Of a DNA stretch of 64,000 nt, positions 39,166-63,970 are shown in pieces. The first letter of the stretch is position 1. Each line of letters starts with the position of its first letter. Made by a program: the position numbers and the translations under genes. The stretch is from Streptomyces griseoviridis (GTDB lineage: Bacteria; Actinomycetota; Actinomycetes; Streptomycetales; Streptomycetaceae). The notes beneath the pieces were generated by a model. The model did not search any database. It saw only the letters and a program-made list of their open reading frames with translations, and was not told the origin of the DNA. Location of the stretch: contig NZ_CP029078.1 of assembly GCF_005222485.1 (NCBI RefSeq), forward strand, positions 7,007,501 to 7,071,500, written 5' to 3'.

Positions 39166-40161
39166 GTGAGACTCCTCGTCACCGGCGGCGCCGGATTCAT
39201 CGGCTCCCACTACGTCCGCAGCCTCCTCGCCGGCGCCTACCCCGGGCACGACGGGACCCGGCTGACCGTGCTGGACAGCCTCACCTACTCGGGCACCCTC
39301 ACCAGCCTGCCGCCCGCGCACCCGCGCCTGACGTTCGTGCGCGGCGACATCCGCGACCGCGAACTCCTCCTCGACCTGCTGCCAGGACACGACGCGGTCG
39401 TCCACTTCGCCGCCGAGTCGCACGTGGACCGCTCCATCGCGGGCTCCACCCCCTTCGTCACCACCAACGTCGTCGGCACCCACACCCTCCTCGAATGCTG
39501 CCGGCGGAGGGGTGTGGAGCGCTTCGTGCACATCTCGACCGACGAGGTCTACGGCTCGGTCGAGGACGGCTCGTGGACGGAGGCGTCCCCACTGGAGGCC
39601 AACTCGCCCTACGGCGCCTCCAAAGCCGCCTCCGACCTGCTGGTGCGCGCCTTCCACCGCACCTACGGGATGTGGACCACCGTCACCCGGTGCAGCAACA
39701 ACTACGGCCCCCACCAGTTCCCCGAGAAGATCATCCCGCTGTTCGTCACCCGCCTCCTCGACGGGCGCAAGGCACCCCTGTACGGCGACGGCCTGCATGT
39801 GCGGGAGTGGCTGCACGTCGACGACCACTGCCGGGCCGTCCAGCTCGTCCTGGAGTCGGGCCGGGCCGGCCGGACCTACAACGTCGGCGGCGGTACGGAG
39901 CTGACCAACCGCGCGCTGACCGAGCGGGTGCTCGCCGAACTCGGTGTCGGCTGGGACCGGGTGGAGCGGGTCGCGGACCGCCCGGGACACGACCGCCGCT
40001 ACTCCCTGGACGGCACCCGCATCCGCGAGGAGCTGGGCTTCGCGCCCCGGGTGGACTTCGCGCGCGGGCTCGCCGACACCGTCCGCTGGTACCGGGACCA
40101 CCGCGACTGGTGGGAGCCGCTCGCCCACCGCGCCGCCGCACTCGACGCCCCGGTCGGCTGA
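39166..40161 (+). CDS. rfbB: dTDP-glucose 4,6-dehydratase
   Basis: 331 aa from GTG. SDR-extended features: TGGAGFIGSH at the N-terminus, AAESHVDRSI, STDEVYGS, and the active-site Tyr-x3-Lys in SPYGASKAASDL. It converts dTDP-glucose to dTDP-4-keto-6-deoxyglucose, the branch point to all dTDP-deoxyhexoses. It faces the thymidylyltransferase gene across a shared terminator. The later sugar genes (epimerase, ketoreductase, transferase) are not in this window, so the pathway must be completed elsewhere, probably to the right. Confidence 0.95.
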   Translation: MRLLVTGGAGFIGSHYVRSLLAGAYPGHDGTRLTVLDSLTYSGTLTSLPPAHPRLTFVRGDIRDRELLLDLLPGHDAVVHFAAESHVDRSIAGSTPFVTTNVVGTHTLLECCRRRGVERFVHISTDEVYGSVEDGSWTEASPLEANSPYGASKAASDLLVRAFHRTYGMWTTVTRCSNNYGPHQFPEKIIPLFVTRLLDGRKAPLYGDGLHVREWLHVDDHCRAVQLVLESGRAGRTYNVGGGTELTNRALTERVLAELGVGWDRVERVADRPGHDRRYSLDGTRIREELGFAPRVDFARGLADTVRWYRDHRDWWEPLAHRAAALDAPVG

Positions 40162-40172
40162 GCCGAGGCCGC

Positions 40173-40217
40173 CGGGCGGGCCCGCGCCGCGGACGACGTC
40201 CGGCGCGGGCCCGCCCG
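40173..40217. terminator. Bidirectional terminator between rfbB and rfbA
   Basis: A perfect 17-bp GC stem (40173-40189 with 40201-40217; arm CGGGCGGGCCCGCGCCG) with an 11-base loop lies between the two convergent sugar genes. Confidence 0.85.
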
Positions 40218-40243
40218 CACGCCCGCTCAACCCCCTTTGTGGC

Positions 40244-41116
40244 TCAGCGGAGTTCGGCGGCGATGGAGATGACGTACTGGCCGTAGCCCGAGGCGGCCAT
40301 CCGCGACCCCAGCCGGTGACAGGCGTCGGCGTCGATGAGGCCGAGCCGCAGCGCGATCTCCTCCAGGCAGGCGATCCGCACGCCCTGGCGCTCCTCCAGC
40401 GTCCGCACGTACTGGCCGGCCTGGAGCAGCGACTCCGGTGTCCCGGTGTCCAGCCAGGCGAAGCCCCGGCCCAGGTCGACCAGCCGGGCCAGGCCCCGCT
40501 CCAGGTAGACCCGGTTCACATCGGTGATCTCCAGCTCGCCGCGCGCCGAGGGCCGCAGGTTCTTCGCGATGTCGACCACGTCGTTGTCGTACAGATAGAG
40601 GCCGGTGATCGCGCGGTTGGAGCGCGGACGCTCCGGTTTCTCCTGGAGGCCGACGAGGACGCCGTCCGCGTCGGTCTCCCCGACGCCGTAGCGCTGCGGG
40701 TCGTTGACCGGGTAGCCGAACAGCACACAGCCCCTGACGTCCCTCGCGTTCGCCGCGAGGGTCTCCGAGAAGCTGGTGCCGTGGAAGATGTTGTCGCCGA
40801 GGATGAGCGCCACCGGGCCGTCCCCGATGTGCTCGGCGCCGATCAGGATCGCGTCGGCGATGCCCCGCGGGGTGTCCTGCTCCGCGTAGGTGAGCCGCAG
40901 CCCGAGGTGGGAGCCGTCACCGAGGAGCGCCGTGAAGCGCGCGGTGTCGGCGGGGTTGGTGATGAGGAGGATGTCCCGGACGCCCGCGAGCATGAGCACC
41001 GAGAGCGGGTAGTAGATCATCGGCTTGTCGCCCACGGGAAGAAGCTGCTTCGACGTCCCGATGGTGATCGGGTGCAGCCGGGTCCCGGTCCCGCCGGCGA
41101 GAATGATGCCCTTCAT
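40244..41116 (-). CDS. rfbA: Glucose-1-phosphate thymidylyltransferase
   Basis: 290 aa. The start at MKGIILAGGTGTRLHP is fixed by the family and by AAGGGG upstream. Signature GGTGTRLHP...SKQLLPVGDKPMIYYP binds nucleotide; the C-terminal dimer region (GYGQYVISIAAELR) is intact. It makes dTDP-glucose for the adjacent dehydratase. Its start faces that of the E1 alpha gene across 372 bases. Confidence 0.95.
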   Translation of the reverse strand: MKGIILAGGTGTRLHPITIGTSKQLLPVGDKPMIYYPLSVLMLAGVRDILLITNPADTARFTALLGDGSHLGLRLTYAEQDTPRGIADAILIGAEHIGDGPVALILGDNIFHGTSFSETLAANARDVRGCVLFGYPVNDPQRYGVGETDADGVLVGLQEKPERPRSNRAITGLYLYDNDVVDIAKNLRPSARGELEITDVNRVYLERGLARLVDLGRGFAWLDTGTPESLLQAGQYVRTLEERQGVRIACLEEIALRLGLIDADACHRLGSRMAASGYGQYVISIAAELR

Positions 41117-41488: not shown

Positions 41489-42472
41489 ATGACGTCCGGC
41501 CCTGCCCGGTTGCTCCGAGACATGGTGCGCATCCGCGTCGTCGAGGAGACACTCGCCGACCACTACCGCGACGAGCAGGAGATGCGTACCCCCACCCACT
41601 TCTCGATCGGCCAGGAGGCGACCGCGGTCGGCGTCTGCGCGGCCACCCGGCCCGGCGACTGGGTCTACACCGCCCACCGCTCCCACGCCCCCTACCTCGC
41701 CAAGGGCGGTGACCTCACGGCCATGGTCGCCGAGCTGTACGGCCGGCAGTCCGGCTGCGCGCACGGCCGGGGCGGCTCCATCCACCTCGTCGACCGGACG
41801 GCGGGCTTCGCGGGCTCCGCGGCCATCCTCGGCGAGATGATCCCGGTGGCGGTCGGCACCGCCTGGGCCTTCGCCCGCCAGGGCGGGTCGCGGGTCGCGG
41901 TCACCTTCTTCGGCGACGGCGCGACCGAGGAGGGCGTCTTCGCCGAGTCCCTCAACCTGGCGGCGGTGCGGCGCGCCCCGGTCGTCTTCGTCTGCGAGAA
42001 CAACCTCTACTCCATCTCCTCCCCGCTCGCCGCGAGGCAGCCCGCGGGCCCGACGATCCGGGACCGGGCCGAGGCCGCGGGGGTGACCGCCGTCCAGGTC
42101 GACGGCAACGACGTGTTCGCCGTCCACGACGCGGCCCTGACGGCGCTGCGGCACTGCCGCGACGGCGGCGGACCCTATCTGCTCGAACTGGCGACCTACC
42201 GCTGGCGCGAACACGTCGGTCCCGGCCACGACCACGGTCACGGCCAGGGGTACCGGCCGGTCGAGGAGACCGAGGCGTGGATCGCCCGCTGCCCGATCGC
42301 GCGGGCGGCCGACGCCCTGCGCGAACGGGACCCCGGCATCGACCGGACCGTCGCCGACTGGCGCGAGCGGTGCCGCGAGGAGATCCGCGACGCGGTCGCC
42401 CACGCCAGGCAGCAGCCGTTCCCCGACGTCGAGGCCCTGCTCGACGGCGCCTACCAGCCCGTGCCCCGCTGA
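41489..42472 (+). CDS. ThDP-dependent dehydrogenase E1, alpha subunit
   Basis: 327 aa from ATG with GAGGAGG upstream. ThDP motif GDGATEEGVFAESLN and the conserved HRSHAPYLAKGG and GRGGSIH segments are intact; an unusual His-rich stretch (HVGPGHDHGHGQG) precedes the C-terminus. Together with the beta subunit it should decarboxylate a 2-keto acid on ThDP. No E2 acyltransferase gene follows. Two roles fit: acetyl transfer onto a dTDP-ketosugar, as described for avilamycin- and kosinostatin-type branched sugars, or supply of a branched acyl-CoA starter with a housekeeping E2. The neighbouring dTDP-sugar genes favour the first. Confidence 0.88.
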   Translation: MTSGPARLLRDMVRIRVVEETLADHYRDEQEMRTPTHFSIGQEATAVGVCAATRPGDWVYTAHRSHAPYLAKGGDLTAMVAELYGRQSGCAHGRGGSIHLVDRTAGFAGSAAILGEMIPVAVGTAWAFARQGGSRVAVTFFGDGATEEGVFAESLNLAAVRRAPVVFVCENNLYSISSPLAARQPAGPTIRDRAEAAGVTAVQVDGNDVFAVHDAALTALRHCRDGGGPYLLELATYRWREHVGPGHDHGHGQGYRPVEETEAWIARCPIARAADALRERDPGIDRTVADWRERCREEIRDAVAHARQQPFPDVEALLDGAYQPVPR

Positions 42473-42504: not shown

Positions 42505-43542
42505 GTGCGCACTCTCACCTATGGGCAGGCGATCAGTGAGGCCACCGTGCAGTGCATGGCGGCGGACGACAGCATCTTCGTCGCGGGAGAGGGCGTCGAC
42601 GACATCAAGGGCACCTTCGGCACCACGAAGGAGGCGTACGCGCGGTTCGGCGCCGGCCGCGTCATCGACGTGCCCAACTCCGAGAACGCCATGGCGGGGT
42701 TCGCGATCGGCGCGGCGGCGGCCGGACTGCGCCCGCTGCTGGTGCACACCCGCGCCGACTTCATGTTCCTCGCGCTCGACCCGCTGGTGAACCTGGCCGC
42801 CAAGTGGCGCTACATGTACGGCGGCGACAAGGGCGGGGTGCCCGTCGTCACCCGCGGGGTCGTCGGGCGGGGCTGGGGGCAGGGCGCGACGCACTCGCAG
42901 AGCCCGCACGCCACCTTCGCCCACTACGCGGGCCTGCACGTGGCGGCGCCCGCGTCACCCGCGGACGCCAAGGGGCTGCTGGTGCGGGCGCTGACCGGGG
43001 AGACCCCCGTCGTGCTGGTGGAGAACCGCAACCTGTACCCGCTCACCGGGGAGGTGCCCGAGGAGGCCACCCCGATCGACTTCGGGGTCGGCAGGATCGC
43101 CCGCAGGGGCGACGACGTCACCGTGGTCGCGACCTCCCTGATGGTGCACGAGGCGGAACGCGCCGCCGAGCAACTGGCCGGACGGGGCATCAGCGTGGAG
43201 GTCGTCGACGTGCGCACCCTGCGCCCCCTCGACGACCGGATCATCTGCGAGTCGGTGGCCAGGACCGGCCGGCTGGTCGTGGCCGACACCAGCTGGGCCC
43301 GCTACGGATTCAGCGCGGAGGTCGCGGCGGTGGTCGCGGAGCACATACCGCAGGCCCTGACCGCCCCGGTACGGCGCCTCACCCTGCCGGACAGCCCGGC
43401 CCCGGTGTCCTGGCCCCTGGAGGAGGCGTTCCACCCGGGCGCCGCCGGGGTCGTCGAGGCCTGCCTGCGACTGTGCGGCCAGGCCCCGGGCGACCTGCCC
43501 GCGCTGGCGGACGTGGCGGCGGGGTTCCAGGGCCCGTACTGA
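42505..43542 (+). CDS. ThDP-dependent dehydrogenase E1, beta subunit
   Basis: 345 aa from GTG with GAGGAGG upstream, 32 bases after the alpha subunit. It has the transketolase pyrimidine-binding domain (PNSENAMAGFAIGAAAAGLRP; ALDPLVNLAAKWRYMYGG) and C-terminal domain (VVTRGVVGRG; VVDVRTLRPLD). The LVNLAAKWRYMYGG segment resembles the E1 beta proteins of sugar-branching and surface-polysaccharide loci more than the PDH/BCKDH type, by my recollection. It forms the ThDP site jointly with the alpha subunit. Confidence 0.88.
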   Translation: MRTLTYGQAISEATVQCMAADDSIFVAGEGVDDIKGTFGTTKEAYARFGAGRVIDVPNSENAMAGFAIGAAAAGLRPLLVHTRADFMFLALDPLVNLAAKWRYMYGGDKGGVPVVTRGVVGRGWGQGATHSQSPHATFAHYAGLHVAAPASPADAKGLLVRALTGETPVVLVENRNLYPLTGEVPEEATPIDFGVGRIARRGDDVTVVATSLMVHEAERAAEQLAGRGISVEVVDVRTLRPLDDRIICESVARTGRLVVADTSWARYGFSAEVAAVVAEHIPQALTAPVRRLTLPDSPAPVSWPLEEAFHPGAAGVVEACLRLCGQAPGDLPALADVAAGFQGPY

Positions 43543-43769: not shown

Positions 43770-43958
43770 TCAGTCGGGTCCGTCGCGCAGGGCGCGGTCC
43801 AGGGCGCGTTCCGTCTCGGTGAGCGGTGTGCCGTGCCCGAGCCGCTCCGGGTGGCCGGGTGCCGGGGCGTCGAGCGGGCGGACGGCCGGGACGTACACCC
43901 AGATGCCGCCCGCCGCGATCATCGCCCGGGACACGGCGCGCAGGACGCGACTGATCAT
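43770..43958 (-). CDS. Small protein at the end of the minimal PKS operon (DUF6059-like)
   Basis: 62 aa, too short for most gene finders. It starts at an ATG overlapping the acyltransferase stop (ATGA), which implies translational coupling. The sequence has a hydrophobic/aromatic N-terminal segment (SRAMIAAGGIWVYVP), the PGHPERL motif and a C-terminal acidic helix (PLTETERALDRAL). I recall similar short proteins (DUF6059) in Streptomyces natural-product clusters. Function unknown; a peripheral membrane or partner-protein role is possible. Confidence 0.7.
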   Translation of the reverse strand: MISRVLRAVSRAMIAAGGIWVYVPAVRPLDAPAPGHPERLGHGTPLTETERALDRALRDGPD

Positions 43959-45640
43959 CGTCGTCGTCCCGCCGCCGGTAGCGGCCCGCGCGCCGGGTTC
44001 CCCGGGCCGCCGCTCCACAGGTTCTCCAGCGCCGTGGTGTCCAGGTCGTGGCCCTCGGTCCAGAGCCGGGACACCGCGCCGAGCACGGCCCTGCGGTCCG
44101 CCGCCGGGTCGCTCGGGCGGGCCGGAAGCATCGGGACCACCGCGCTCGCCCCGCTGCGCACCGCCGGGTGGCGGCGCGTGAACGACGCCAGCGTCTGCCG
44201 CGGCCCCGCCTCCACCAGCAGCATGTCCTCCGCGGCGAGCAACTCGTCGAGGGCCGGTCCGAAGTACACCGTGTCGGTGATCTGCCGCGCCCAGAACCGC
44301 GGGCTCAGCGCCTCCGGTTCGCCCATCAGCCCGCCCGTGTAACCGGAGTAGAGCGCGAGGCCGGGGGGCCGGAACCGGATGCCGGCGTACGCGCGCTCGA
44401 CGGCCGCCGAGGCCGGTGCCATCGCGGGGGAGTGGAAGGGGCTGGTCGCCGGCACCGCCACCACCGTGTACCCGTCGTCCCGCAGCCGCTTCCCGACGGC
44501 GGACAGCGGGGCGGCCGGACCGGCCAGCATCGTCTGGAGCCGGGCGTTGACGGCGGCCACGGCCACCTCGCCGACCAGGTAGGGCCGCAACCGCTCCGCC
44601 GAAGCGGCCACCGCGAGCATCCCCCCGGCGGGCACCGACAGCGCGTGCCGGACGCGGGCCCGCATCATCGCGACCGCGTCCCCGAGGGACACCACACCGG
44701 CGAAGACCGCCGCCACCAGTTCGCCCGCGCTGTGCCCGAGCAGGGCCGTCGGACGGACCCCCCAGCTCATGACCATCGAGCCGAGCGCGTAGTCCACGGC
44801 GAACAGCAGCGGCTGCGCCCGCCGGACGTCGTCGACCGGGACAACCGGGTCGTGCGGGCTGAGCCAGTCGGCGCGGACGGCCGCGCCCTCGGCGCCCATC
44901 AGTCCGAGGACCGTGTCGACGGCCTCGGTGAACACCTGGTCCCGCGTGTAGAGCCCGGCCGCCATCGCGGTGTGCTGCGAGCCCTGGCCGGGGAAGAGCA
45001 GGGCCACCGGGCGGGGCCGGCCGGCCGTGACCTGCTCGGCGGCGTCGAGGGCGGCGGCCGGGTCCGCGCGTGCGCACAGGGCCGCGCCCCTGACGGGCCC
45101 CGCCGCCGGACCGCAGGGCACCACCGCGGGCAGCGCCCGGAACACGTCGTCGGTCAACTCGCGGGCCACCGGGCGCAGTCGGTCCCGGGTCCCGGCCGCG
45201 TCCGCCGGGGTGCGGCCCGACCAGAGCAGCAGCCGCGAGGTGTCGTCGGCCGGCGCCCCGGCCGGCTCCCGATCGCGGGGAGCCCCGCGCCGGGTCACCC
45301 GGGTGACCCGGACCGTGCCGGGCGCACCGGTCAGGTTCACCACCAGCACCAGGTCCTCGGCGCCGTCCGCGAGCGTCCTGTGCGCGAGGGCCAGGGCGCC
45401 GAGCGGGGAGACCGCCGTCCGGACGGGGACCCCCTCGACGACGGTGCCGCCCGGCGGCGAGGCGTCCCGGGTCACCACCACCACGGCCGCCGCCCGCGTC
45501 GGCGCGTCGACGAGGCCGTGGGCGGCCAGCGCGGTGCGGACCAACCGCAGGTCACCCTGCGGACGGTGCGCCCCGCCCGTCTCAGGGACCGTCAACTCCG
45601 CTGTGGCCAGGGACAGTTCGGTACGAGCTGTGGAGCGCAT
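43955..45640 (-). CDS. Stand-alone PKS acyltransferase with long N-terminal extension
   Basis: 561 aa. The start at ATG 45640 follows GGGAGGAG. The acyltransferase domain (about 210-510) has LFPGQGSQ, the nucleophile Ser304 in GHSAGE, and catalytic His403 in SPFHSPAM. Residues 135-180 resemble the post-KS linker of modular type I PKSs (LLLWSGRTPADAAGTRDRLRPV), and residues 30-110 look like a KS-domain remnant, so the gene may derive from a modular PKS. It should transfer malonyl, or a special acyl group, onto the ACP encoded just upstream; its start overlaps the 3' end region of the ACP operon neighbour closely. Confidence 0.88.
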   Translation of the reverse strand: MRSTARTELSLATAELTVPETGGAHRPQGDLRLVRTALAAHGLVDAPTRAAAVVVVTRDASPPGGTVVEGVPVRTAVSPLGALALAHRTLADGAEDLVLVVNLTGAPGTVRVTRVTRRGAPRDREPAGAPADDTSRLLLWSGRTPADAAGTRDRLRPVARELTDDVFRALPAVVPCGPAAGPVRGAALCARADPAAALDAAEQVTAGRPRPVALLFPGQGSQHTAMAAGLYTRDQVFTEAVDTVLGLMGAEGAAVRADWLSPHDPVVPVDDVRRAQPLLFAVDYALGSMVMSWGVRPTALLGHSAGELVAAVFAGVVSLGDAVAMMRARVRHALSVPAGGMLAVAASAERLRPYLVGEVAVAAVNARLQTMLAGPAAPLSAVGKRLRDDGYTVVAVPATSPFHSPAMAPASAAVERAYAGIRFRPPGLALYSGYTGGLMGEPEALSPRFWARQITDTVYFGPALDELLAAEDMLLVEAGPRQTLASFTRRHPAVRSGASAVVPMLPARPSDPAADRRAVLGAVSRLWTEGHDLDTTALENLWSGGPGNPARGPLPAAGRRR

Positions 45641-45675: not shown

Positions 45676-45948
45676 TCACCCGGCCCCGGGGAGGTCGCCG
45701 CCCGCGTTGATCAGCGCCAGCAGGGCGCGCGGGGTGTCCGCGTCGGCGACCGTCTCGTCCGGCAGCCGGACGCCGTACTCGCGCTGGACCTGGCCGATGA
45801 CCTCGAGCATGGCCAGGGAGTCGTAGCCGAGGTCGTCGAAGGAGACGTCCAGGACGTCCCCGTCCAGGTCGACGCCCTCCTCCTCGCCCGCGCTCTCCCG
45901 CAGCATCCGGGTGAGATCGGCCAGGGTTACCGTGGTGCCTGTGGACAT
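45676..45948 (-). CDS. Acyl carrier protein (type II PKS)
   Basis: 90 aa. The phosphopantetheine attachment Ser44 lies in the LGYDSLAMLE motif. It lies between the chain-length factor and the acyltransferase genes, the expected place for a minimal PKS ACP. It must be activated by a phosphopantetheinyl transferase encoded elsewhere. Confidence 0.95.
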   Translation of the reverse strand: MSTGTTVTLADLTRMLRESAGEEEGVDLDGDVLDVSFDDLGYDSLAMLEVIGQVQREYGVRLPDETVADADTPRALLALINAGGDLPGAG

Positions 45949-45977: not shown

Positions 45978-47198
45978 TCAGTCGTCGGTTCGGCGCAGCA
46001 CCAGGGCCGCGTTGAAGCCCCCGTAGCCGCGGGCCAGCACCAGGGCCGACCGGGGCGCGGTGTCCCGGGGTCTGTCGGTCACCAGGTCGAGGCCGTAGTC
46101 GGGCGCGGGGTCCGGCACGTTGACGGTCGGCGGGATCACCCCGTCGCGCAGGGCGAGCAGCGCGGTGGCGACGTCGAGGGCGGCGCCGCCCGCCAGGAGC
46201 CTGCCGGTCATCGTCTTGGGCACGGTCACCGGCACTCCGCGCGGCCCGAACAGCCCGCTGATCGCGGCCGCTTCGGCGCGGTCCAGCGCGAGGACGCCCG
46301 CTCCGTCGGCGAAGACCACGTCGATGTCCCGCGCGGTGAGACGGGCGTCGGCGAGGGCGTTCTCGGCCGCCCGCCGCAGCCCGGGGGGCCGGCCGCTGCC
46401 GGGCGCCGGGTCCATCGTCGCCGCGTATCCGGCGATCTCCCCGTAGACGCGCGGCGCGCCCCGCTCCCGCGCCGAGGCGGCGTCCTCGACGACGATGACG
46501 GCGCCCCCCTCACCGACGACGTATCCGCGGGCGTCGGCGGAGAACGGCAGGTAGGCGCGGTCCGGGTCGCGGGCGGTGCTCATGAGCCCCGAGGCGATCT
46601 GCGGCACCCACCCCCAGGGGCACAGCGCGGCGTCCACCCCGCCCGACACCACGAGCGGGGTGCCCTTGCGGATGTGGCGCCGCGCGTGGCCGAGGGCGTC
46701 GATGCCCCCGGCCTGTTCGGTGAGCAGGACCCCGCTGGGGCCGCGCATCTTGTGCCGGATGGAGATCTGGCCGGTGTTGACCGCGTAGAACCAGGCGAAG
46801 GACTGGTACGCGCTGACGTGTTCCTTGCCCTTGCTCCACAGGTTCTCCAGCTCCCGCTGGCCGAACTCGACGGCCCCGCCCGAGGCCGCGGTGACCACGC
46901 CCATCCCGTACTCGGGCAGCCGCCGCAGGTCGGCGCCCGCGTCGCCGATCGCCCAGTCGGCGGCGGCCAGGGCGATGCGGGTCATGTGGTCGGTCTGCGG
47001 CATCAGCCGGCTGGGGATGTGGTCCTCGGCGACGAACCCCTTGATCTCCCCGGCGAGCACGGACGGGTACTGGGTGGCGTCGAAGCGGGTCAGCGGGGCG
47101 AGGCCGGTGCGTCCGGCGAGGGTGGCCTTCCAGAACGCCTCCGTGCCGAGGCCGTTGGGCGCCGCGACCCCGAGGCCCGTGACGACGGCGCGGGTCAT
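45978..47198 (-). CDS. Type II PKS chain-length factor (KS beta)
   Basis: 406 aa. It has the KAS fold, but the active-site Cys is replaced by Gln162 ([10 protein letters not shown]), the hallmark of KS beta. It pairs with the ketosynthase to set chain length and to generate acetyl-ACP by decarboxylation when acetate priming is used. Its ATG overlaps the ketosynthase stop (ATGA), so the heterodimer partners are translated in coupled fashion. Residues around the gate region ([15 protein letters not shown]) are small, which may permit a longer chain than act-type octaketides, but this is tentative. Confidence 0.95.
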
Positions 47199-48457
47199 GA
47201 CCGCACCTCGGGTCCGGTGAGGAGCATGGCGCTCTGGAACCCGCCGAAGCCGCTGCCGACGCTGAGCACCACGTCGGCCTGCTGCCTGCGCGCGGTCAAC
47301 GGGATGTAGTCGAGGTCGAGTTCGGGGTCGGGTTCGTGCAGGTTGGCGGTCGGGGGCAGCACCCCGTGCTCGATCGCCAGGGCGCAGGCGACGACCTCCA
47401 GGGCGCCGATCGCGCCGAGCGAGTGCCCGATCATCGACTTGATGGAGCTGATCGGCACCGCGTAGGCGTGGTCGCCGAGGCTGCGCTTGAACGCGCCTGT
47501 CTCGTGGCGGTCGTTCATCTTGGTGCCGGAGCCGTGGGCGTTGACGTAGCCGATGGAGTCGGGCGGCAGCCTGGCCTCCTGGAGGGCGGCGTCGATGGCC
47601 TCGGCCATCTCGCGTCCGTCCGGCTTGAGGCCCGTCATGTGGTACGCGTTGCAGCGGGCGGCGAACCCGGCGATCTCGGCGTAGATGTGCGCCCCGCGCC
47701 GCCTGGCGCTCTCCCACTCCTCCAGGACCATGACCGCGGCGCCCTCGCCGAGGACCAGTCCGCCGCGACTGCGGTCGAAGGGCCGGCAGGCGCGCTCCGG
47801 TTCGTCGTTGTGCGGGGTGGTGGCGTGGATGGCGTCGAAGCATGCGGAGGTGATGGGGGAGATGGGGGCCTCGGTGGCGCCCGCCATCATCACGTCGACG
47901 CTCCCCTCCCTGATCAGCTCCACCGCGTGCCCGACCGCGTCGAGCCCCGAGGTGCAGCCGGTGGAGATCACGGCGGCCGGACCCTCGGCGCCCGCGACCC
48001 AGGCGACCTCGGCCGCCATCGTGTTGGGCACGAAATGCCGGTACAGCTCGGGCACCGCGTACCGGTGGTCGACGTTCCACGTCCGGCCGCCGTCGCTGAC
48101 GACGACGTACTCGCGCTCCAGACTCGTGGTGCACCCCACGGCGCTGCCGATCGACGTGCCGATCCGGTCGGGTGCCAGCCGGGCGACGTCGAGACCGCTG
48201 TCGGCGAGCGCCTCGCGTGCGCTCACCACGGCGAACTGGGCGGCCCGGTCGAGGCGTCGGATCTCCTGCGGGGTCAGACCCGCGGCCACCGGGTCGAAGT
48301 CGCACTCGGCCGCGACCCGGGAGCGGAAGGGCGACGGGTCGAAGAAGCTGATGGTGCGGGTGGCGGACCGGCCGGAGGTGAGGAGTTCCCAGTACTCCTT
48401 CACCCCGATGCCTCCGGGGGCCACCGTGCCCAGGCCCGTGACGGCGACTCTGCGCAT
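47195..48457 (-). CDS. Type II PKS ketosynthase alpha
   Basis: 420 aa. Catalytic triad Cys168 (STGCTSGLD), His308 (NAHGSGT) and His345 (IGHSLGA) is complete and spaced as in the actinorhodin KS. The KAETGAFK-type segment ([13 protein letters not shown]) is that of aromatic rather than polyene (highly reducing) systems. Start at ATG 48457 with GAGGTGAGG. First gene of the operon KS-CLF-ACP-AT-small protein. The 294 bases upstream have no gene; no clear SARP heptamer repeats could be recognised there. Confidence 0.96.
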
Positions 48458-52099: not shown

Positions 52100-52151
52100 G
52101 GGTCTCACGGGGGGATCACGCGGGGATCACGCGGCAATCACGCCCGCGCGG

Positions 52152-55613: not shown

Positions 55614-56849
55614 TCAAGACCGGCTGGTCACGTCCCCCGCCACGGCGTCGTCCGGCGCGGAGCCGGTGCGGGCCGCGCCGGACGCCAGCAGCCGCCTGAT
55701 CTCCGGCCCCGAGCAGCCCAGTTCGGTCAGCACCTCACGGGTGTGCTGGCCGGGCGCCGGGGGCGGCGCGGGCCGGCCCTGCCCGACCCCCTCGAACCGG
55801 GGCGCGGCGCCGGGCTGGAGCAGCGGACCGTCCTGCACGTACGCGCCCCTGGCCCGCAGATGCGGGTGCCTGGCGGCCTCCTCGACGGTCAGCACCGGCG
55901 TCACACAGGCGTCCGTGCCCGCGAAGGCCGCCGCCCAGCCGTCCCGGGTCCGCCGCGCGAACCGCTCCGCGAACACCGACCGCAGCGCCTCCCACTCCGC
56001 GCGCCGCCACCGGTCGGGCAACCGGGCCAGGTCCAGCCCGAGCCCCTTGACCAGCGCCGCGTAGAACCGGTCCTCCAGGGCCCCGACCGCGACGTACCTC
56101 CCGTCCTGGCACCGGTACACGCCGTAGAAGGGGGCGCCGCCGTCGAGCAGGTTGCCGCCCCGCGCCGGATGCCACTGCCCGGCGCCCGACATGCCGAGGA
56201 CCATGCTCATCAGCAGCGCGGTCCCGTCCACGACGGCCGTGTCCACCACCCGGCCCCGCCCGGTCCGCCGCTGGTCGAGGACGGCCGCGAGGATGCCGCC
56301 GAACAGCAGCATCCCGCCGCCCGCGAAGTCGCCGAGCAGGTTCACCGGCGGCACCGGCGGGCCCCCGGCCGAGCCGATCGCGTCCAGAGCGCCGGTCAGC
56401 GCGATGTAGTTGATGTCGTGGCCCGGCGCCTGGGCCAGCGGACCCCGCTGCCCCCAGCCGGTCATCCGCGCGTACACCAGGGCCGGATTGCGGGCGTGGC
56501 ACTGGCGGGGCCCGATGCCGAGACGCTCGGCCACCCCGGGCCTGAACCCCTCGACGAGCACATCGCACCGCTGCGCCAGCCGCAGCGCGGTCCGCACCCC
56601 CTGACGGTTCTTCAGGTCGAGCGCGATCGAACGGCGGCCCCGGTCGAGGACGCTGTGCCACTGCGCGTAGGGCCGGACCCCGTCGGCCCGGTCGACGCGG
56701 ATCACCTCGGCCCCCAGATCGGCCAGCAGCATGCAGGCGAAGGGCACCGGGCCGATGCCGTTCAGCTCCAGGACGCGCAGCCCGGCCAGCGGCGGCCTGG
56801 CCGCCTGCGCCTCGGCTGCCGGAGGCGAGTGATCACGGATTGCCGACAT
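55614..56849 (-). CDS. Alpha-methylacyl-CoA racemase (CaiB/BaiF superfamily)
   Basis: 411 aa, starting ATG 56849 with GGAG upstream. The whole sequence matches the racemase branch rather than formyl- or carnitine-CoA transferases: GWGQRGPLAQAPGHDINYIAL, VPPVNLLGDFAGGG and DGGAPFYGVYRC. His144, Asp174 and Glu259 correspond to His126, Asp156 and Glu241 of M. tuberculosis MCR (constant offset of 18, from memory). The enzyme interconverts 2R and 2S methyl-branched acyl-CoAs. First gene of the starter operon; such a gene in a type II PKS cluster points to a stereodefined 2-methyl acyl starter. Confidence 0.87.
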   Translation of the reverse strand: MSAIRDHSPPAAEAQAARPPLAGLRVLELNGIGPVPFACMLLADLGAEVIRVDRADGVRPYAQWHSVLDRGRRSIALDLKNRQGVRTALRLAQRCDVLVEGFRPGVAERLGIGPRQCHARNPALVYARMTGWGQRGPLAQAPGHDINYIALTGALDAIGSAGGPPVPPVNLLGDFAGGGMLLFGGILAAVLDQRRTGRGRVVDTAVVDGTALLMSMVLGMSGAGQWHPARGGNLLDGGAPFYGVYRCQDGRYVAVGALEDRFYAALVKGLGLDLARLPDRWRRAEWEALRSVFAERFARRTRDGWAAAFAGTDACVTPVLTVEEAARHPHLRARGAYVQDGPLLQPGAAPRFEGVGQGRPAPPPAPGQHTREVLTELGCSGPEIRRLLASGAARTGSAPDDAVAGDVTSRS

Positions 56850-57216
56850 GACACGCTCCGTCGCTCGGCGACACGGTCGGCTCCAGGCTGCGCGAGAGCG
56901 GTCAACAGCGGCTCGAACGGGGGCAGTGCCGGGGCCCGGACAGCCCCGGAGGACGTCTTGAGGCCCGAGGCCCCGGCCCCGGCCCCGGCAAGTCCACCCG
57001 AGGCCCGGCCCGGACAGCCCCGGAGGACCTCTTGAGGCCCGAGGCACCGGCCCCGGCAAGTCACCCGAGGTCCTAGGAAGGGCCCCGGCAGGTCCACCCG
57101 AGGTCCAGGGCAGCACAACCGCGTTCGCCCACGCTGGCCGTCCGACCGACCGCGGCCGGTGGCGGCACGGCGAGCCGCCGGGCCGCTCCAGGACGACCGC
57201 CGTGAAGGGGACAACC
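56850..57216. repeat. Divergent gap with 74-bp tandem repeat
   Basis: Two copies of a 74-bp period (from 56935 and from 57009, each starting CCCGGACAGCCCCGGAGGAC) are followed by a partial third ending GGTCCACCCGAGG near 57105. The gap separates the racemase and SDR genes, which are transcribed away from each other, so promoters for both operons must lie around the repeats. Confidence 0.8.
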
Positions 57217-57999
57217 ATGCCCGATCCAACGTTCGCGGGCCGTACCGTCGTCGTCACCGGCGCGGGCACCGGCATCGGCAGGGCCACCGCGCTGGCCTTC
57301 GCCGAACAGGGCGCCGCCACCGTCGTCGTCTGCGGCCGGCGCAAGGAACGCCTGGAGGAGGTCGCGGCCGAGCACCCCGCGATCGTCCCGGTGGTCGCCG
57401 ACGTGGCCACCGGGACCGGCGCGCGGGCCCTCGCCGACGAGGTGCGGGCCTGCGGCGACGGCCTTGACGTCCTGGTGCACAACGCGGGTGTCTTCCGCTT
57501 CAGCCCGCTCGCCGCCCTCGCCCCCGACACCGTGCGGGAGGTCCTCGACACCAATCTGCTCGGCCCGCTGCTGGTCACGGGGGAGTTGCTGCCGGCGCTG
57601 CTCGCGCGGCGCGGGACCATCGTCCTGGTCTCCAGCCGGGCCGGTCACAACCCCGGGCCTGGCAGCTCGGTGTACTCGGCGAGCAAGGCGGGCGTGCACA
57701 GCCTGACCCGCAGCTGGGCGGCGGAGCTGGCCGTCCACGGGGTCCGGGTCAACGCCGTCGCCCCCGGCTTCGTGCGCACCGAGGCGTACCGCGCCAACGG
57801 CATGACGGTCCGTCAGGTGGAGGGGCTGTTCGACGCGGTGGCCGGCTCCGTCCCGCTGGGCCGGGTCGCGGACACCGACGACATCACGCCCTGGATCACC
57901 CGGCTGGCCGATCCGGCGGCGTCGCTGGTCACCGGGCAGGTCATCACCGTCGACGGCGGCATGGACACGGGCGCGGGGCAGGCCGGCCAAGACGCCTGA
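57217..57999 (+). CDS. Short-chain dehydrogenase/reductase
   Basis: 260 aa from ATG 57217 with AAGGGG upstream. Cofactor motif TGAGTGIG, NAG, catalytic Ser (VSSRAG) and YSASK. It is a classical SDR with NADP-type spacing but lacks features that would mark it as the C9 ketoreductase of aromatic PKSs; it could be that or a later tailoring reductase. First gene of a rightward operon with the exporter and an enoyl reductase. Confidence 0.88.
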   Translation: MPDPTFAGRTVVVTGAGTGIGRATALAFAEQGAATVVVCGRRKERLEEVAAEHPAIVPVVADVATGTGARALADEVRACGDGLDVLVHNAGVFRFSPLAALAPDTVREVLDTNLLGPLLVTGELLPALLARRGTIVLVSSRAGHNPGPGSSVYSASKAGVHSLTRSWAAELAVHGVRVNAVAPGFVRTEAYRANGMTVRQVEGLFDAVAGSVPLGRVADTDDITPWITRLADPAASLVTGQVITVDGGMDTGAGQAGQDA

Positions 58000-59746: not shown

Positions 59747-60781
59747 ATGAGCACCGACAACAGCCGGCGGACACCGACGAGGGCCCGGGAGGTCCGGCTC
59801 ACGAAACCACTGGAGGGCGCGCTGACCCTCGACCACTTCGAGGTCGTCGAGACGCCCGTCCCCGACCCGGCGGACGGAGAGGTGCTGGTCCGCACGGACC
59901 ATCTGTCCCTCGCGGCGGCCTACGCCGACCTCATGCGGCCCGGCTGCCCGCTGCCGGTGCCGCCGTTCCTGCCCGGCGAGCGCCTCGGCGGCGCCGCCCT
60001 CGGCACCGTGGTGCGCTCCGCCTCCGCCGAACTGGCCGCGGGCGACCTGGTCCAGTCGATGAGCGGCTGGTCGGAGTACTCGTCAGGACCCGCGGACCGG
60101 TACGTCAAGCTGGCGCCCGACCTCTTCCCGAGCCCGGTGTACTTCCTGAGCCAGGGCCCCACCGCCTACTACGGGATGGCCGACATCGCCCGGGTGGGCG
60201 CGGGCGACGTCGTCTACGTCTCCGGGGCGGCGGGCGGGGTCGGGTCGCTCGCCGGGCAGATCGCCAGGTGCCGGGGGGCAGCCCGGGTCATCGGCAGCGC
60301 GGGCAGCAAGGAGAAGGCCGCCTACCTCGTCGACGAACTCGGCTACGACGCCGCGTTCGACTACCACGACGGGCCCGTCGTCGACCGGCTGCGCGACCTC
60401 GCCCCCGACGGCATCGACGTGTTCTTCGACAACGTCGGCGGCGAGCAGTTCGAGGCCGCCGTCCAGGTCGCCTCCCCGCACGCCCGCTTCGCCCTGTGCG
60501 GGGCGCTGGCGGGACAGATCGGCGACGCCTCGGCCGGGCACCCCAGGCTCGACCTGATGCGCGCCATCACCCGGCACCTGGAGATCAGGCCGTTCGCCTG
60601 CTACCACCTGCCCGAGCAGATCAGCGCCTGGTACGAGCACTTCGCGCGCTGGTACCACGAGGGCCGGTTCGTCTTCCCGCACACCGTCGTCGAGGGCGGC
60701 CTCCCGCGCGCCCCCGAGGCGATGCTCGCGCTCCTGGACGGCCGCTACCGGGGCAACGTCAGCGTCCGCGTCGGCGACTGA
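59747..60781 (+). CDS. NADP-dependent enoyl/alkenal reductase (PTGR-like MDR)
   Basis: 344 aa from ATG with GAAGGAG upstream. It has the Rossmann signature VYVSGAAGGVGSLAGQIARCRGAARVIGSAGS and DVFFDNVGGEQFEAAV; no zinc ligands. This is the leukotriene-B4-dehydrogenase/CurA branch, which reduces alpha,beta-unsaturated ketones. In the cluster it may act on an enone of the polyketide or of the sugar, or detoxify a reactive product. Confidence 0.85.
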   Translation: MSTDNSRRTPTRAREVRLTKPLEGALTLDHFEVVETPVPDPADGEVLVRTDHLSLAAAYADLMRPGCPLPVPPFLPGERLGGAALGTVVRSASAELAAGDLVQSMSGWSEYSSGPADRYVKLAPDLFPSPVYFLSQGPTAYYGMADIARVGAGDVVYVSGAAGGVGSLAGQIARCRGAARVIGSAGSKEKAAYLVDELGYDAAFDYHDGPVVDRLRDLAPDGIDVFFDNVGGEQFEAAVQVASPHARFALCGALAGQIGDASAGHPRLDLMRAITRHLEIRPFACYHLPEQISAWYEHFARWYHEGRFVFPHTVVEGGLPRAPEAMLALLDGRYRGNVSVRVGD

Positions 60782-60790
60782 CGGCACGAC

Positions 60791-60829: not shown

Positions 60830-60868
60830 TCGTCGCCTCCGCCGTCTCCAGTCCCGCCTCCGCCGTGT

Positions 60869-61249: not shown

Positions 61250-61255
61250 CGGCCG

Positions 61256-62473
61256 CTACGCCCGGCCGGCCCGCGTGAAGCGCACCGGCAGCTGCGCGAG
61301 CCCGCGCAGTTGGAACGTCGGCGGCTTCCAGGTGAGGTCCTCGTACGGCACCGCGAGCGCCAGATCCGGGCACCGTTCGAGCAGGGCCCGCAGCGCGATG
61401 GCGCTCTCCATCCGGGCCAGCGGGGCGCCGACGCAGTGGTGGACGCCGTGCCCGAAGGCGAGATGGGCGCGCACCTCACGCACCTCGCGCTCCAGACTGA
61501 ACCGCTCCGCGTCGGGGAACTGCCTGGCGTCCCGCCCGACGGCCGCCATGCCGATCAGCACCACCTCGCCCGCCGGGATCTCGGTGTCGCCCACCCGCAC
61601 CGGCTCGGTCGTGTACCGGTACGCGGACACCTCCACGGGACCGTCGAACCGCAGGACCTCCTCCACGGCCGTGTCGAGGAGCGACCAGTCGGACCGCAGC
61701 AGGGCGAGCTGGTCAGGGTTGCGCAGCAGGGCGAGCGCCCCGCTGGAGATGACGTTGGCGGTGGACTCGTGCCCGCCGACCAGCAGCAGGAACGCCATCC
61801 CGAGGAGTTCCTCGGGGGAGAGCCGGTCGCCGTCGTCCTGCACGGCCCGCGCCATCGCGCCGAGGAGATCCTCGCCGCCCTCCTTCCGCTTGGTCTCCAC
61901 CAGCGCGTACAGGTAGGCGCCCATCGCCTCCTGCGCCGCGTCGCCCCGCTCGGGGGTCGGCGGCGCCGACAGGTCGCTCGACCACTGGTGGAAGTCGGAG
62001 CGGTCCCCCTCGGGGACGCCCAGCAGTTCGCAGATGACGGACATCGGCAGCGGCAGCGCGTACGACTCCACCAGGTCCACCTCGCCCGCGGCGGGCAGCG
62101 CGTCGAGCAGGTCGTGCGCGATCCGCTCCACCCGAGGGCGCATCGACCGCACCCGGCGCAGCGTGAACTCCCGCGCGATGAACTTCCGCAGCCGGGTGTG
62201 GTCCGGCGGGTCCACCTGCATCAGGGTCTTGCCCACCACATTGCGGCCGAGGTTCTCCCAGGCCTTGAGATGGCGGATGTCGTTGCTCAGCCGGGGATCG
62301 GCGAAGGCGGCCCGCGCCGCCTCGTAGTCGGTGATCAGCCAGCAGTCACGCCCGTCAAGGACGCGGGCCCGGTGCACCGGACCCCGCGCGCGCAGCTCGG
62401 CGAAGAGCGGATAGGGGTCGGCGGTGTAACTCGGGTCCGCTCCGGTGAGATCGGCTACCAGGCCCTCGGTCAT
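61256..62473 (-). CDS. Cytochrome P450
   Basis: 405 aa, start at MTEGLVADLTG. I-helix GGHEST, ExxR (EEVLRF), and heme ligand Cys347 in FGHGVHHCVG are all present. Soluble actinobacterial CYP of the 105/107-like type, needing external ferredoxin and reductase, neither of which is adjacent. It likely hydroxylates or epoxidises the polyketide, and its gene shares a promoter region with the AlkZ-like gene. Confidence 0.92.
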   Translation of the reverse strand: MTEGLVADLTGADPSYTADPYPLFAELRARGPVHRARVLDGRDCWLITDYEAARAAFADPRLSNDIRHLKAWENLGRNVVGKTLMQVDPPDHTRLRKFIAREFTLRRVRSMRPRVERIAHDLLDALPAAGEVDLVESYALPLPMSVICELLGVPEGDRSDFHQWSSDLSAPPTPERGDAAQEAMGAYLYALVETKRKEGGEDLLGAMARAVQDDGDRLSPEELLGMAFLLLVGGHESTANVISSGALALLRNPDQLALLRSDWSLLDTAVEEVLRFDGPVEVSAYRYTTEPVRVGDTEIPAGEVVLIGMAAVGRDARQFPDAERFSLEREVREVRAHLAFGHGVHHCVGAPLARMESAIALRALLERCPDLALAVPYEDLTWKPPTFQLRGLAQLPVRFTRAGRA

Positions 62474-62857
62474 GACAGCTCCAGGGGGGTCCGAACGGCG
62501 ATGGGCACACAGGCGCGGCAGGCGCCCAGTCCGAGACCGTAGGCGGCGCCGCTCGACCCCCGCTCGCGCCCTGCTCACCCGCCGTCCGCCCACCGGCAGG
62601 CCCGCGCGCGGGCGGCCCGGGAGGGGGCGGGGCGGCGGATGCCGACGCACCGGCAGGTCCGCGCGCGGGCGGCGCGGGAGGGGGCGAGGCGGCGGATGTT
62701 GACGCACCGGCAGGTCCGTGCGCGGGCGGCTCGGGAGGGGGGGCGGGGCGGCGGATGTTGACGCACCGGCAGGCCCGCGCGCGGGCGGCCCGGGAGGGGG
62801 CAAGACGGCCGATGCCGACGCACCGGCTCGCCCCGCGCCGGCGGCTCGACGGGGATA
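62474..62857. repeat. Divergent gap holding a 57-bp minisatellite
   Basis: Four tandem copies of a 57-bp unit (starting at 62591, 62648, 62705 and 62764; the third is 59 bp) and a partial fifth from 62821 run to about 62830. Each unit begins CACCGGCAGG and contains GCGCGGGCGGC and GGGAGGGGGC. They fill the promoter region shared by the P450 and the AlkZ-like gene. Confidence 0.9.
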
Positions 62858-63970
62858 ATGAACCGCATGCCGTCGCTCTCCACGCGCACCCTCAACCGGA
62901 CCCTGCTGCAACGCCAGTTGCTCCTCGACCGGGTGACCTGGCCGGTCGCCGACGTGGTCGGACGGCTGGTCGCGATGCAGGGGCAGGAACCCGACGCGCC
63001 CTACGTGGGCCTGTGGACGCGGGTGACCGGCTTCCGGCACGACGCGCTGTCGACGTCGCTGCGCGAGCGCCGGATCGTGCGCGGCGCCCATCTGCGCACC
63101 ACCCAGCACCTCGCGCTCGCCGACGACTTCCGCTGGCTGCGCCCGCTGCTCCAACCCCGCCTCGACCGCGCCCCGATGGCCGGCCTGCGGCGCGAGATCG
63201 ACGGCGTCGACCTCGCCGAACTCGCGGCCGTGGCCCGCCGGACGCTGGCCGGAAAGACCCTGACCAGGCGGGAGTTGGGCGTGCTGCTCGCGGAGCACTT
63301 CCCCGACCGGCGGCCGGGCCCCCTCGCCGTCTCGGCGCACTTCCTGGTGGCGATGGTGCACCCGCCGCCCAGCGGACTGTGGGGGCGGCGCGGTCCCGTG
63401 CCGTGCGCGCTCGCGGAGGACTGGATCGGGCGCGACCTCGAACAGGCGCCGTCGGTGGCCACGTTGGTGACGCGGTACCTGGCCGCGTTCGGGCCCGCCG
63501 ACGTGAAGGACGTCCAGGCGTGGTCGGGGCTGACCCGGCTGCGGGAGGTCGTCGAGGAGCTGCGGCCCCGGCTGCGGGTCCACCGCGACGAGCACGGCAG
63601 GGAGCTGTTCGACCTGCCGGAGGCCGAGCCCGCAGACCCCGAACTCCCGGCGCCGGTACGGTTCCTGCCCGCCTTCGACAACCTGCTCCTCGGCCACGCC
63701 GACCGCGGCCGGGTGATCGCCGACGCGCACCGCAAGCTGGTCTGCCCCGGACAGGCGACGGTACGGCCGACGTTCCTCGTCGACGGCTTCGTCAGCGGTG
63801 TCTGGGCGCACCGGGAAGGCCAGTTGCTGGTCTCCCCGTTCCGTGAACTGCCCGGCGGTGACCTCGACGAGGTGACCCGGGAGGCGGGGCGGCTGGCCGC
63901 GTTCCTGGCCGAGGACGGCACCCCGCCGACCGTCAGGTTCGACAACGCCCTCGTCTCAGGCGGACGGTGA
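62858..63970 (+). CDS. HTH_42/AlkZ-family winged-helix protein, putative DNA glycosylase
   Basis: 370 aa from ATG 62858. The fold pattern of the AlkZ/YcaQ (HTH_42) family spans the protein, and the catalytic-loop motif is Gln38-Gly-Gln40 (VAMQGQEPDAPYVGLW), the QxQ type described for AlkZ, the azinomycin self-resistance glycosylase; YcaQ-like members have QxD. Family members unhook bulky alkyl adducts and interstrand crosslinks from DNA. Homologues occur widely in Streptomyces outside clusters, so linkage to this polyketide as a self-resistance factor is inference. Confidence 0.8.
   Translation: MNRMPSLSTRTLNRTLLQRQLLLDRVTWPVADVVGRLVAMQGQEPDAPYVGLWTRVTGFRHDALSTSLRERRIVRGAHLRTTQHLALADDFRWLRPLLQPRLDRAPMAGLRREIDGVDLAELAAVARRTLAGKTLTRRELGVLLAEHFPDRRPGPLAVSAHFLVAMVHPPPSGLWGRRGPVPCALAEDWIGRDLEQAPSVATLVTRYLAAFGPADVKDVQAWSGLTRLREVVEELRPRLRVHRDEHGRELFDLPEAEPADPELPAPVRFLPAFDNLLLGHADRGRVIADAHRKLVCPGQATVRPTFLVDGFVSGVWAHREGQLLVSPFRELPGGDLDEVTREAGRLAAFLAEDGTPPTVRFDNALVSGGR

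What the first reader, a model, noticed from the sequence alone, without database searches (positions are those of the whole stretch)
39166..63970. Type II PKS cluster combining branched-starter, two-carbon-sugar and DNA-repair-type genes
A minimal aromatic PKS, a Ser-type KSIII, an alpha-methylacyl-CoA racemase, a citramalate-synthase-like enzyme, dTDP-sugar genes with an E1 alpha/beta pair, a P450 and an AlkZ-like protein occur in one continuous region. The combination recalls trioxacarcin/LL-D49194 (2-methylbutyryl starter, octose, DNA alkylation, AlkZ-type resistance) but I do not recognise this exact gene set. The right end is cut by the window.
Basis: partly seen in the sequence, partly recalled or inferred. 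Interest (0 to 1): 0.88.

Follow-up and report, generated by a model that had tools for sequence, protein, structure and literature searches.

The report
Trioxacarcin-type cluster, starter branch lost
This Streptomyces chromosome carries a complete cluster of the kind that makes trioxacarcins (DNA-damaging antitumour antibiotics), but two genes thought to help prepare the first building block are dead or gone, which makes the strain a natural test of what those genes do.

Summary
The listed genes are real. The cluster runs past the window: from RmlB (39,166) to a methyltransferase about 31.7 kb beyond the right edge, 51 called genes.

It is a trioxacarcin-type cluster: its second AlkZ-type glycosylase is 84% identical to TxnU4, and 49 of 51 genes have reciprocal best hits in S. 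lushanensis and in S. tendae.

The neighbouring AMP-ligase gene (TxnP1 in S. bottropensis) is absent. All 31 scorable loci that carry the ligase keep the synthase's metal motif; S. bottropensis has both genes; strain SolWspMP-5a-2 shares both losses. Against strict coupling, 4 of 13 non-Streptomyces genomes have a synthase without the ligase.

The priming ketosynthase, racemase, PKS, sugar and resistance genes stay conserved. Best reading: a live pathway that now takes its branched starter from ordinary isoleucine breakdown. A changed starter is not excluded. New variant of a known kind; the product is untested.

The parts
39166..40161 (+). RmlB, dTDP-glucose 4,6-dehydratase; left edge of the cluster
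   Evidence: gene call; orthologues 82-99% in five relatives, the two genes to its left had no hits there
40244..41116 (-). RmlA, glucose-1-phosphate thymidylyltransferase
41489..42472 (+). E1 alpha (ThDP enzyme, probable two-carbon branching of the octose)
   Evidence: PF00676; present in 4 relatives, absent from S. beigongshangae
42505..43542 (+). E1 beta, partner of the above
   Evidence: PF02779/PF02780; 91-100% in four relatives, at most 37% for other matches in the five genomes searched; own-genome paralogues 35-37%
43955..45544 (-). acyltransferase with GHSxG motif (starter/editing AT type)
   Evidence: PF00698; motif
45676..45948 (-). acyl carrier protein
   Evidence: serine motif
45978..47198 (-). 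chain length factor
   Evidence: Gln in place of Cys
47195..48457 (-). ketosynthase alpha
   Evidence: 91-99% in five relatives; tree
48752..49543 (-). SARP-type regulator
   Evidence: gene (class by eye); orthologues
50503..51279 (+). sensor histidine kinase
   Evidence: gene (class by eye); orthologues
51301..51912 (+). response regulator
   Evidence: gene (class by eye); orthologues
51913..52151 (.). 239-bp gap where relatives carry the ~552-580 aa AMP ligase (TxnP1 in S. bottropensis): gene absent here
   Evidence: no remnant with E below 0.1 by tblastn; no orthologue elsewhere in the genome, best 33%
52152..53123 (-). aromatase/cyclase (two Polyketide_cyc2 stretches)
   Evidence: PF10604
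53188..54222 (-). DpsC-like priming ketosynthase (KSIII), triad Ser113-His292-Asp297
   Evidence: PDB 4xs7/5wgc DpsC, E about 1e-108, aligned triad; 1 of 109 family-invariant positions changed
54225..55532 (-). degenerate citramalate-synthase-like gene: reading frame open, catalytic motifs and HCS_D2 domain lost
55614..56849 (-). CoA-transferase family III protein, alpha-methylacyl-CoA racemase type
   Evidence: PF02515; stretches carrying the His/Asp/Glu recalled as catalytic in these racemases present; 0 of 115 invariant positions changed
57202..57999 (+). short-chain dehydrogenase
   Evidence: PF13561
58270..59688 (+). MFS transporter
   Evidence: gene (class by eye); orthologues
59747..60781 (+). 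quinone-oxidoreductase-like MDR protein
   Evidence: PF00107/PF16884
60869..61177 (-). short protein of unknown role, similar to a second copy about 23.5 kb to the right
   Evidence: no Pfam hit; both copies pick up the same stretches
61256..62473 (-). cytochrome P450 (first of four in the cluster)
   Evidence: haem Cys motif; orthologues 86-98%
62858..63970 (+). AlkZ-type DNA glycosylase, Q-Phi-Q motif (class of TxnU2/LldU5)
   Evidence: PF06224 E 1e-78; motif
63956..64000 (-). 3' end of a FAD/ferredoxin reductase; the cluster continues beyond the window to about 95,723 (L021, L022)

Best explanation
This is a complete trioxacarcin-type biosynthetic cluster. A type II PKS makes a polyketide on a branched starter; an E1 alpha/beta pair and deoxysugar genes make an octose and a second, C-methylated sugar; four P450s and other oxidases build the reactive aglycone; two AlkZ-type glycosylases protect the host from its own DNA adducts. 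In this lineage the starter branch made of the citramalate-synthase-like enzyme and the TxnP1-type AMP ligase has been lost: the ligase gene is gone and the synthase lacks the residues for catalysis. The pathway most likely still uses an alpha-methyl-branched acyl-CoA, taken directly from ordinary isoleucine breakdown, handed over by the racemase and the DpsC-like priming ketosynthase. SHOWN: gene content, synteny, motif loss, ligase absence, conservation of the other genes. INFERRED: the product, the sugars, the source of the starter, the resistance function, the loss of activity. The open frame of the synthase may be kept because it ends 2 bases before the ketosynthase start (translational coupling, inferred).
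For: Family: TxnU4 84% identity; 49 of 51 genes with reciprocal best hits in S. lushanensis, 49 of 51 in S. tendae, 46 of 51 in S. beigongshangae, counted on my own gene calls; catalytic motifs found in the 12 genes checked. Starter branch: in the synthase 24 of 136 positions conserved at >=99% are changed and 33 deleted, against 0-2 changed and none deleted in 14 relatives printed from the same test, and 25 plus 33 in SolWspMP-5a-2; among the 120 best homologues TLRDG is kept in 119, DAEH in 120, CDTNG in 120, H-x-H-x-D in 119 and GERxGN in 120; HCS_D2 domain present in S. lushanensis and not found here. Own-branch dN 0.193, highest of 48 genes, next 0.116. GC at codon positions 1+2 up 8.1 points, next of 49 genes 3.9. 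Ligase present in 32 of 59 KSIII loci; the synthase can be scored in 31 of those 32 and keeps the metal motif in all 31. S. bottropensis: synthase with all motifs (P0124) and ligase TxnP1 (P0243). The same loss in an independent draft genome, SolWspMP-5a-2. Rest of starter set under constraint: KSIII 1 of 109 and racemase 0 of 115 family-invariant positions changed, synthase 82 of 183. Paralogous E1 beta genes elsewhere in the genome.
Against: Nothing shows that the strain makes any product. dN/dS of the synthase between this strain and SolWsp is 0.37, not 1, and five of the 41 other genes compared score higher, so the recent divergence does not single it out. By the ratio of own-branch to S. 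lushanensis-branch dN it is third of 48 (4.8, after 6.7 and 6.2 for two slower genes). The ligase-synthase link is not strict: 4 of 13 non-Streptomyces genomes keep a cluster-type synthase (61%) without a ligase of 45% or more. A primary citramalate synthase (55%) remains in this genome, as in four others, and could stand in. The txn and lld clusters themselves could not be aligned (records not held); comparison with S. bottropensis rests on three proteins, one of which (P0124) is placed in txn only by its neighbouring accession.
Confidence: 0.55

Rival explanations
1. The starter has been switched. Without the synthase and ligase the PKS is primed by another acyl group (for example isobutyryl, propionyl or acetyl), so the strain makes a trioxacarcin congener with a different tail.
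For: Two genes found together in 31 of 31 scorable ligase-bearing loci are both lost here. DpsC shows almost no preference among three short acyl-CoAs in vitro (PMC12664062, passages). A review says direct evidence for 2-methylbutyryl-CoA is lacking (PMC5321127, passages).
Against: Priming KSIII and racemase keep nearly all invariant positions; an alpha-methylacyl racemase would be useless for an unbranched starter (inference).
Confidence: 0.25
2. The synthase-like protein is no longer an enzyme but keeps a structural or regulatory role (pseudoenzyme), which is why its frame stays open.
For: Frame open in two strains after heavy divergence; dN/dS 0.37 between them; both ends still align in one frame with S. 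lushanensis across 7 gap runs.
Against: Codon-position GC drift and loss of invariant residues look like relaxed constraint. Ending 2 bases before the KSIII start gives a simpler reason to keep the frame.
Confidence: 0.12
3. The whole cluster is in early decay and makes nothing.
For: One degenerate gene and one missing gene in the starter branch.
Against: Most other genes keep low dN/dS, and the 12 genes checked keep their motifs; few genes score high between this strain and SolWsp.
Confidence: 0.07
4. The synthase damage is a sequencing or assembly artefact.
For: None found; considered by default.
Against: An independent draft genome (SolWspMP-5a-2) shows the same motif losses and no ligase, while its synthase differs in 9% of residues.
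Confidence: 0.01

Closest known systems
Trioxacarcin (txn) cluster, S. bottropensis NRRL 12051, KP410250
   Same: TxnU4 orthologue 84%; two HTH_42 glycosylases, one Q-Phi-Q and one H-Phi-Q (PMC8934636); a citramalate synthase in S. bottropensis (P0124), placed in txn by its neighbouring accession; SARP and response regulator (Txn9, Txn11 named in a reference title); an acyltransferase_3 gene like the TxnB11 of a review.
   Different: Here the citramalate-synthase-like protein is degenerate (P0124 keeps the motifs) and the TxnP1 ligase gene is absent (P0243 in S. bottropensis). The record itself was not available for gene-by-gene alignment.
Clusters in S. lushanensis, S. tendae and Streptomyces sp. 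AC512_CC834
   Same: 65-95% identity for reciprocal best hits, E1 pair present, same order where one contig spans the cluster.
   Different: They keep the synthase motifs and the ligase. S. lushanensis has an extra MFS gene.
Streptomyces sp. SolWspMP-5a-2 cluster
   Same: 94-100% in the genes compared except the synthase; the same degenerate synthase (91%) and no ligase.
   Different: Draft assembly, cluster split over contigs; nine of our genes were not found as orthologues in the stretches fetched.
LL-D49194 (lld) cluster, and the S. beigongshangae cluster that resembles it
   Same: S. beigongshangae has the same PKS, starter and oxidation genes.
   Different: S. beigongshangae lacks the E1 pair and its TxnU4/LldU1-class glycosylase is 67-68% to ours; it keeps synthase and ligase. 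That it is an lld cluster is inferred, not tested against MK501817.
Kidamycin (kid) cluster
   Same: DNA-reactive aromatic polyketide with unusual starter.
   Different: Primed by a type I PKS, Kid13 (PMC10646177, abstract and passages).

Membership tests
Trioxacarcin-type cluster | Type II minimal PKS with a priming KSIII (here DpsC-like, Ser-His-Asp) | tested here: met
   synteny; that txn's own KSIII is DpsC-like was not seen
Trioxacarcin-type cluster | Two HTH_42 glycosylases, one Q-Phi-Q and one H-Phi-Q | tested here: met
   note 118 of the 120 best homologues of the second also carry H-A-Q, so the motif alone is not diagnostic
Trioxacarcin-type cluster | ThDP E1 alpha/beta pair plus deoxysugar genes and two glycosyltransferases (branched octose and second sugar) | tested here: met
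   sugar structures not testable
Trioxacarcin-type cluster | Membrane O-acyltransferase gene (TxnB11 class) | tested here: met
   PF01757 in L022:8831-10012; equation with TxnB11 inferred
Trioxacarcin-type cluster | Intact citramalate-synthase-like gene (feature of the relatives, not of the product definition) | tested here: not met
Trioxacarcin-type cluster | TxnP1-type AMP ligase gene (feature of the relatives, not of the product definition) | tested here: not met
Trioxacarcin-type cluster | Production of a trioxacarcin with an isoleucine-derived starter | not testable with these tools
   needs fermentation and labelling
DpsC-like priming ketosynthase | Ser-His-Asp triad in a KSIII-type protein | tested here: met
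   Ser113, His292, Asp297 align with DpsC (triad named in PMC12664062)
AlkZ/TxnU DNA glycosylase | AlkZ-like domain with the catalytic motif | tested here: met
   PF06224 for both proteins, motifs; activity not tested
Citramalate synthase | H-x-H metal site, GERxGN loop and post-HMGL domain | tested here: not met
   TIGR00977 hit is 265 bits against a cut-off of 450

The most novel reading that the evidence does not exclude
A natural double loss of the citramalate-synthase-like enzyme and the TxnP1-type ligase has rewired chain initiation, so that this lineage makes a trioxacarcin-type DNA alkylator on a different starter: an undescribed congener produced by evolution rather than by engineering.
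Probability: 0.25. Interest if true: 0.65.

Novelty: new variant of a known kind. Interest (0 to 1): 0.5.

Why it matters
How trioxacarcin PKSs obtain their branched starter is not settled: one review notes isoleucine labelling but no direct evidence for 2-methylbutyryl-CoA (PMC5321127, passages), another adds a condensation with acetyl-CoA and a decarboxylation (PMC9570651, passages). This strain and its relative are natural mutants lacking the two genes that, by my inference, best fit the extra steps. Whether they still make trioxacarcins, and with what tail, would tell whether those genes build the starter or only boost its supply. If the tail has changed, the strain is a source of new members of a very potent antitumour class.

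Tried and rejected
A spore-pigment or simple acetate-primed cluster was considered and rejected on gene content (starter, sugar and resistance genes); the KS/CLF tree agrees but holds no spore-pigment reference. The idea that the E1 pair makes the branched starter was rejected as less likely: it is absent from S. beigongshangae, which keeps the starter genes. The idea that the loci with about 69-74% KSIII are kidamycin clusters was dropped: kidamycin is primed by a type I PKS. A strict rule that synthase and ligase always go together was dropped. The H-Phi-Q motif as a diagnostic mark was dropped: 118 of the 120 best homologues have it. A second copy of the lost genes elsewhere in the genome was sought and not found, apart from a primary citramalate synthase at 55%. 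No structure was predicted; I judged that it would not separate the rivals.
Full report
WHAT IS THERE. The window is bases 7007501-7071500 of a single-contig genome of 8.96 Mb. I fetched the 37 kb to the right and called genes there. The cluster continues with a ferredoxin and its reductase, three more P450s, and, by eye, an epoxide hydrolase, sugar 4-ketoreductase, epimerase, C-methyltransferase, 2,3-dehydratase, 3-ketoreductase, a transporter, cyclase-like and SnoaL-like proteins and three O-methyltransferases; two glycosyltransferases, an acyltransferase and a second AlkZ-like protein are supported by Pfam. It ends at an O-methyltransferase at about 95,723 in window coordinates. RmlB (39166) and that methyltransferase are taken as the edges: the two genes to the left, and the second gene to the right, had no hits in the relatives' stretches; the first gene to the right (DinB-like) has a 74% orthologue in S. 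tendae only.

WHICH FAMILY. The second AlkZ-like protein is 84% identical to TxnU4 of S. bottropensis. In the NAR 2022 paper (PMC8934636: abstract, passages and section 21 seen) the txn and lld clusters each hold two such glycosylases, one with a Q-Phi-Q and one with an H-Phi-Q motif; here the first has Q-G-Q and the second H-A-Q with His at residue 43, as in TxnU4. H-A-Q is however found in 118 of the 120 best homologues, so identity, not the motif, carries the argument. A scan of genome contigs with the KSIII gave 59 loci (records very near the window's own may be left out). Five (L023-L027) are the same kind of cluster. Comparison on my own gene calls (51 genes): reciprocal best hits for 49 of 51 in S. 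lushanensis, 49 of 51 in S. tendae and 46 of 51 in S. beigongshangae; some misses are gene-calling misses (the short gene at 60869 is seen by tblastn in L024-L027). SolWspMP-5a-2 and AC512 are split over contigs, so missing genes there mean little. Gene order is the same in S. tendae and S. lushanensis apart from inserted genes; S. beigongshangae is rearranged on its right side. In a small tree KS and CLF nest with these clusters; named outside systems were not in it.

TWO-CARBON SUGAR. The E1 beta protein is 91-100% identical in four relatives, and other matches in the five genomes, S. beigongshangae included, reach at most 37%; E1 alpha is likewise missing from S. beigongshangae. A review describes alpha-ketoacid dehydrogenase pairs that add two-carbon branches to sugars, trioxacarcin included (PMC12247030, passages).

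THE STARTER GENES. The KSIII matches DpsC of daunorubicin biosynthesis (4xs7, 5wgc; E about 1e-108) with Ser113, His292 and Asp297 in the triad columns (triad named in PMC12664062, passages). The CoA-transferase family III protein has the stretches that I recall as the racemase His/Asp/Glu. Of positions invariant in all other members taken from my loci, 1 of 109 (KSIII, 57 references) and 0 of 115 (racemase, 25 references) are changed; cyclase 1 of 72 (52 references), KS 5 of 188 (10), CLF 8 of 230 (5), one P450 17 of 347 (4), synthase 82 of 183 (17).

THE BROKEN BRANCH. The protein of 54225-55532 is 435 residues long; the full-length relatives have about 540. No HCS_D2 domain is found in it, while the S. 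lushanensis protein has one, and it has lost one histidine of the H-x-H metal site and the GERxGN loop. Among the 120 best homologues of the S. lushanensis protein H-x-H-x-D is kept by 119, GERxGN by 120, and three further motifs by 119-120. Of 136 positions conserved in at least 99% of 120 references (118 of the 120 listed homologues, two dropped for length, plus S. tendae and S. beigongshangae), 24 are changed and 33 deleted here, 25 and 33 in SolWsp; the 14 references printed lose 0 to 2 and delete none. On the branch to this lineage its dN is 0.193, highest of 48 genes (next 0.116), while on the S. lushanensis branch it is an ordinary 0.040; by the ratio of the two branches it is third of 48. 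GC at codon positions 1 and 2, over aligned codons, is 8.1 points higher than in S. lushanensis; the next of 49 genes is 3.9, and the same gene differs by 0.1 between S. tendae and S. lushanensis. I read this as relaxed constraint in a high-GC genome. Between this strain and SolWsp dN/dS is 0.37, and five of 41 other genes score higher, so recent change is not neutral and does not single the gene out.

Between the response regulator and the cyclase four relatives carry an AMP-ligase gene of about 552-580 codons. The S. bottropensis orthologue is named TxnP1 in UniRef (P0243). Here the gap is 239 bp with no remnant at E below 0.1, and the best match in this genome is 33% identical over part of the protein, as is the best in SolWsp (33%). 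Among the 59 KSIII loci (at most 10 kb on each side, several shorter), 32 have the ligase and 27 do not. Of the 32, which are Streptomyces apart from two, 31 have the synthase in the stretch, all with the H-x-H-[DN]-D motif; three of these are called without their N-terminus, and L054 is cut by its contig end. The 27 without are L023 and 26 loci from Lentzea and other non-Streptomyces genera. In 13 genomes from that group, searched whole, none has a ligase of 45% identity or more (best 42%; where those matches lie was not checked), and 4 of 13 have a 61% synthase besides a 51-53% one, so the pairing is strong where the ligase occurs but the synthase can occur without it. In a sample of 392 genomes of the genus, 19 have this KSIII at E <= 1e-130 (this one included); of the other 18, 17 have the synthase with its metal motif beside the KSIII and one has none within 1.5 kb.

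HOW IT PROBABLY WORKS. [quoted passage not shown] another that it is 2-methylbutyryl-CoA from isoleucine (PMC9636800, passages); a third that direct evidence for that CoA ester is lacking (PMC5321127, passages). The primary paper (Zhang 2015) is not held. The synthase is the candidate for the condensation and the ligase for activating a free acid; this is my inference, and no paper in the library holds both 'trioxacarcin' and 'citramalate'. Both are lost here while racemase and KSIII are kept, so the simplest reading is that the branched acyl-CoA now comes straight from primary metabolism; paralogous E1 beta genes exist elsewhere in the genome, and that they belong to branched-chain ketoacid dehydrogenases is assumed. 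A switched starter is the main rival. The synthase reading frame ends 2 bases before the KSIII start; translational coupling would explain why the frame stays open.

STATUS. Family assignment and the loss of the branch: shown by sequence, about 0.95 each by my judgement. Source of the starter and product: inferred, about even odds for the best explanation. Resistance by the glycosylases: by homology to TxnU4 and the AlkZ family only.

WHAT IS NEW. Trioxacarcin clusters and their AlkZ-type resistance are known. A natural lineage that has lost the citramalate-synthase/TxnP1 branch while keeping the rest was not found in the paper searches I made (I saw listings, and passages of the papers named above). 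The window's strain is unnamed in these tools, so its chemistry may already have been examined elsewhere.

Noticed in passing
genome C1:8762000-8779558 (L142): A second type II PKS cluster: KS 73% and CLF 68% to the window's, with two FAD-oxygenase-like genes (by eye), a cyclase, and deoxysugar genes including a 2,3-dehydratase-like one at 66%; probably a glycosylated aromatic polyketide, not further identified.
   Followed up: partly
L028-L054, L079: A group of 28 loci, Streptomyces apart from two, with 69-74% KSIII, AMP ligase, cyclase and (where the stretch reaches) a citramalate-synthase-like gene, many also with epoxide hydrolase, P450 or an AlkZ-like gene: probably another family of branched-starter aromatic polyketides, product unknown to me.
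   Followed up: partly
L055, L058, L059, L060, L070, L073: Loci of the Lentzea group carry short open frames (121-193 aa) that resemble a fragment of the citramalate-synthase-like protein, possibly independent remnants.
   Followed up: no
L022:11374-14723: Two O-methyltransferases, almost identical over long stretches by eye, flank a P450 at the right end of the cluster; the same arrangement is called in S. tendae.
   Followed up: no
proteins P0001-P0120: The H-Phi-Q motif, described in print as a unique active-site motif of TxnU4/LldU1, occurs in 118 of the 120 best homologues of the second glycosylase, many from metagenome sources.
   Followed up: partly
window 34636-38163: Carboxylic-acid-reductase-like protein (adenylation, carrier and reductase parts, by eye) just left of the cluster; no hit in the relatives' stretches, so probably not part of it.
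   Followed up: no
L098 (S. lushanensis contig, 5111-6265): The genome search reports one in-frame stop within the matched stretch of the TxnU4-class glycosylase gene; the listed protein is shorter (372 aa, P0005), so this may be only a start-site matter.
   Followed up: no
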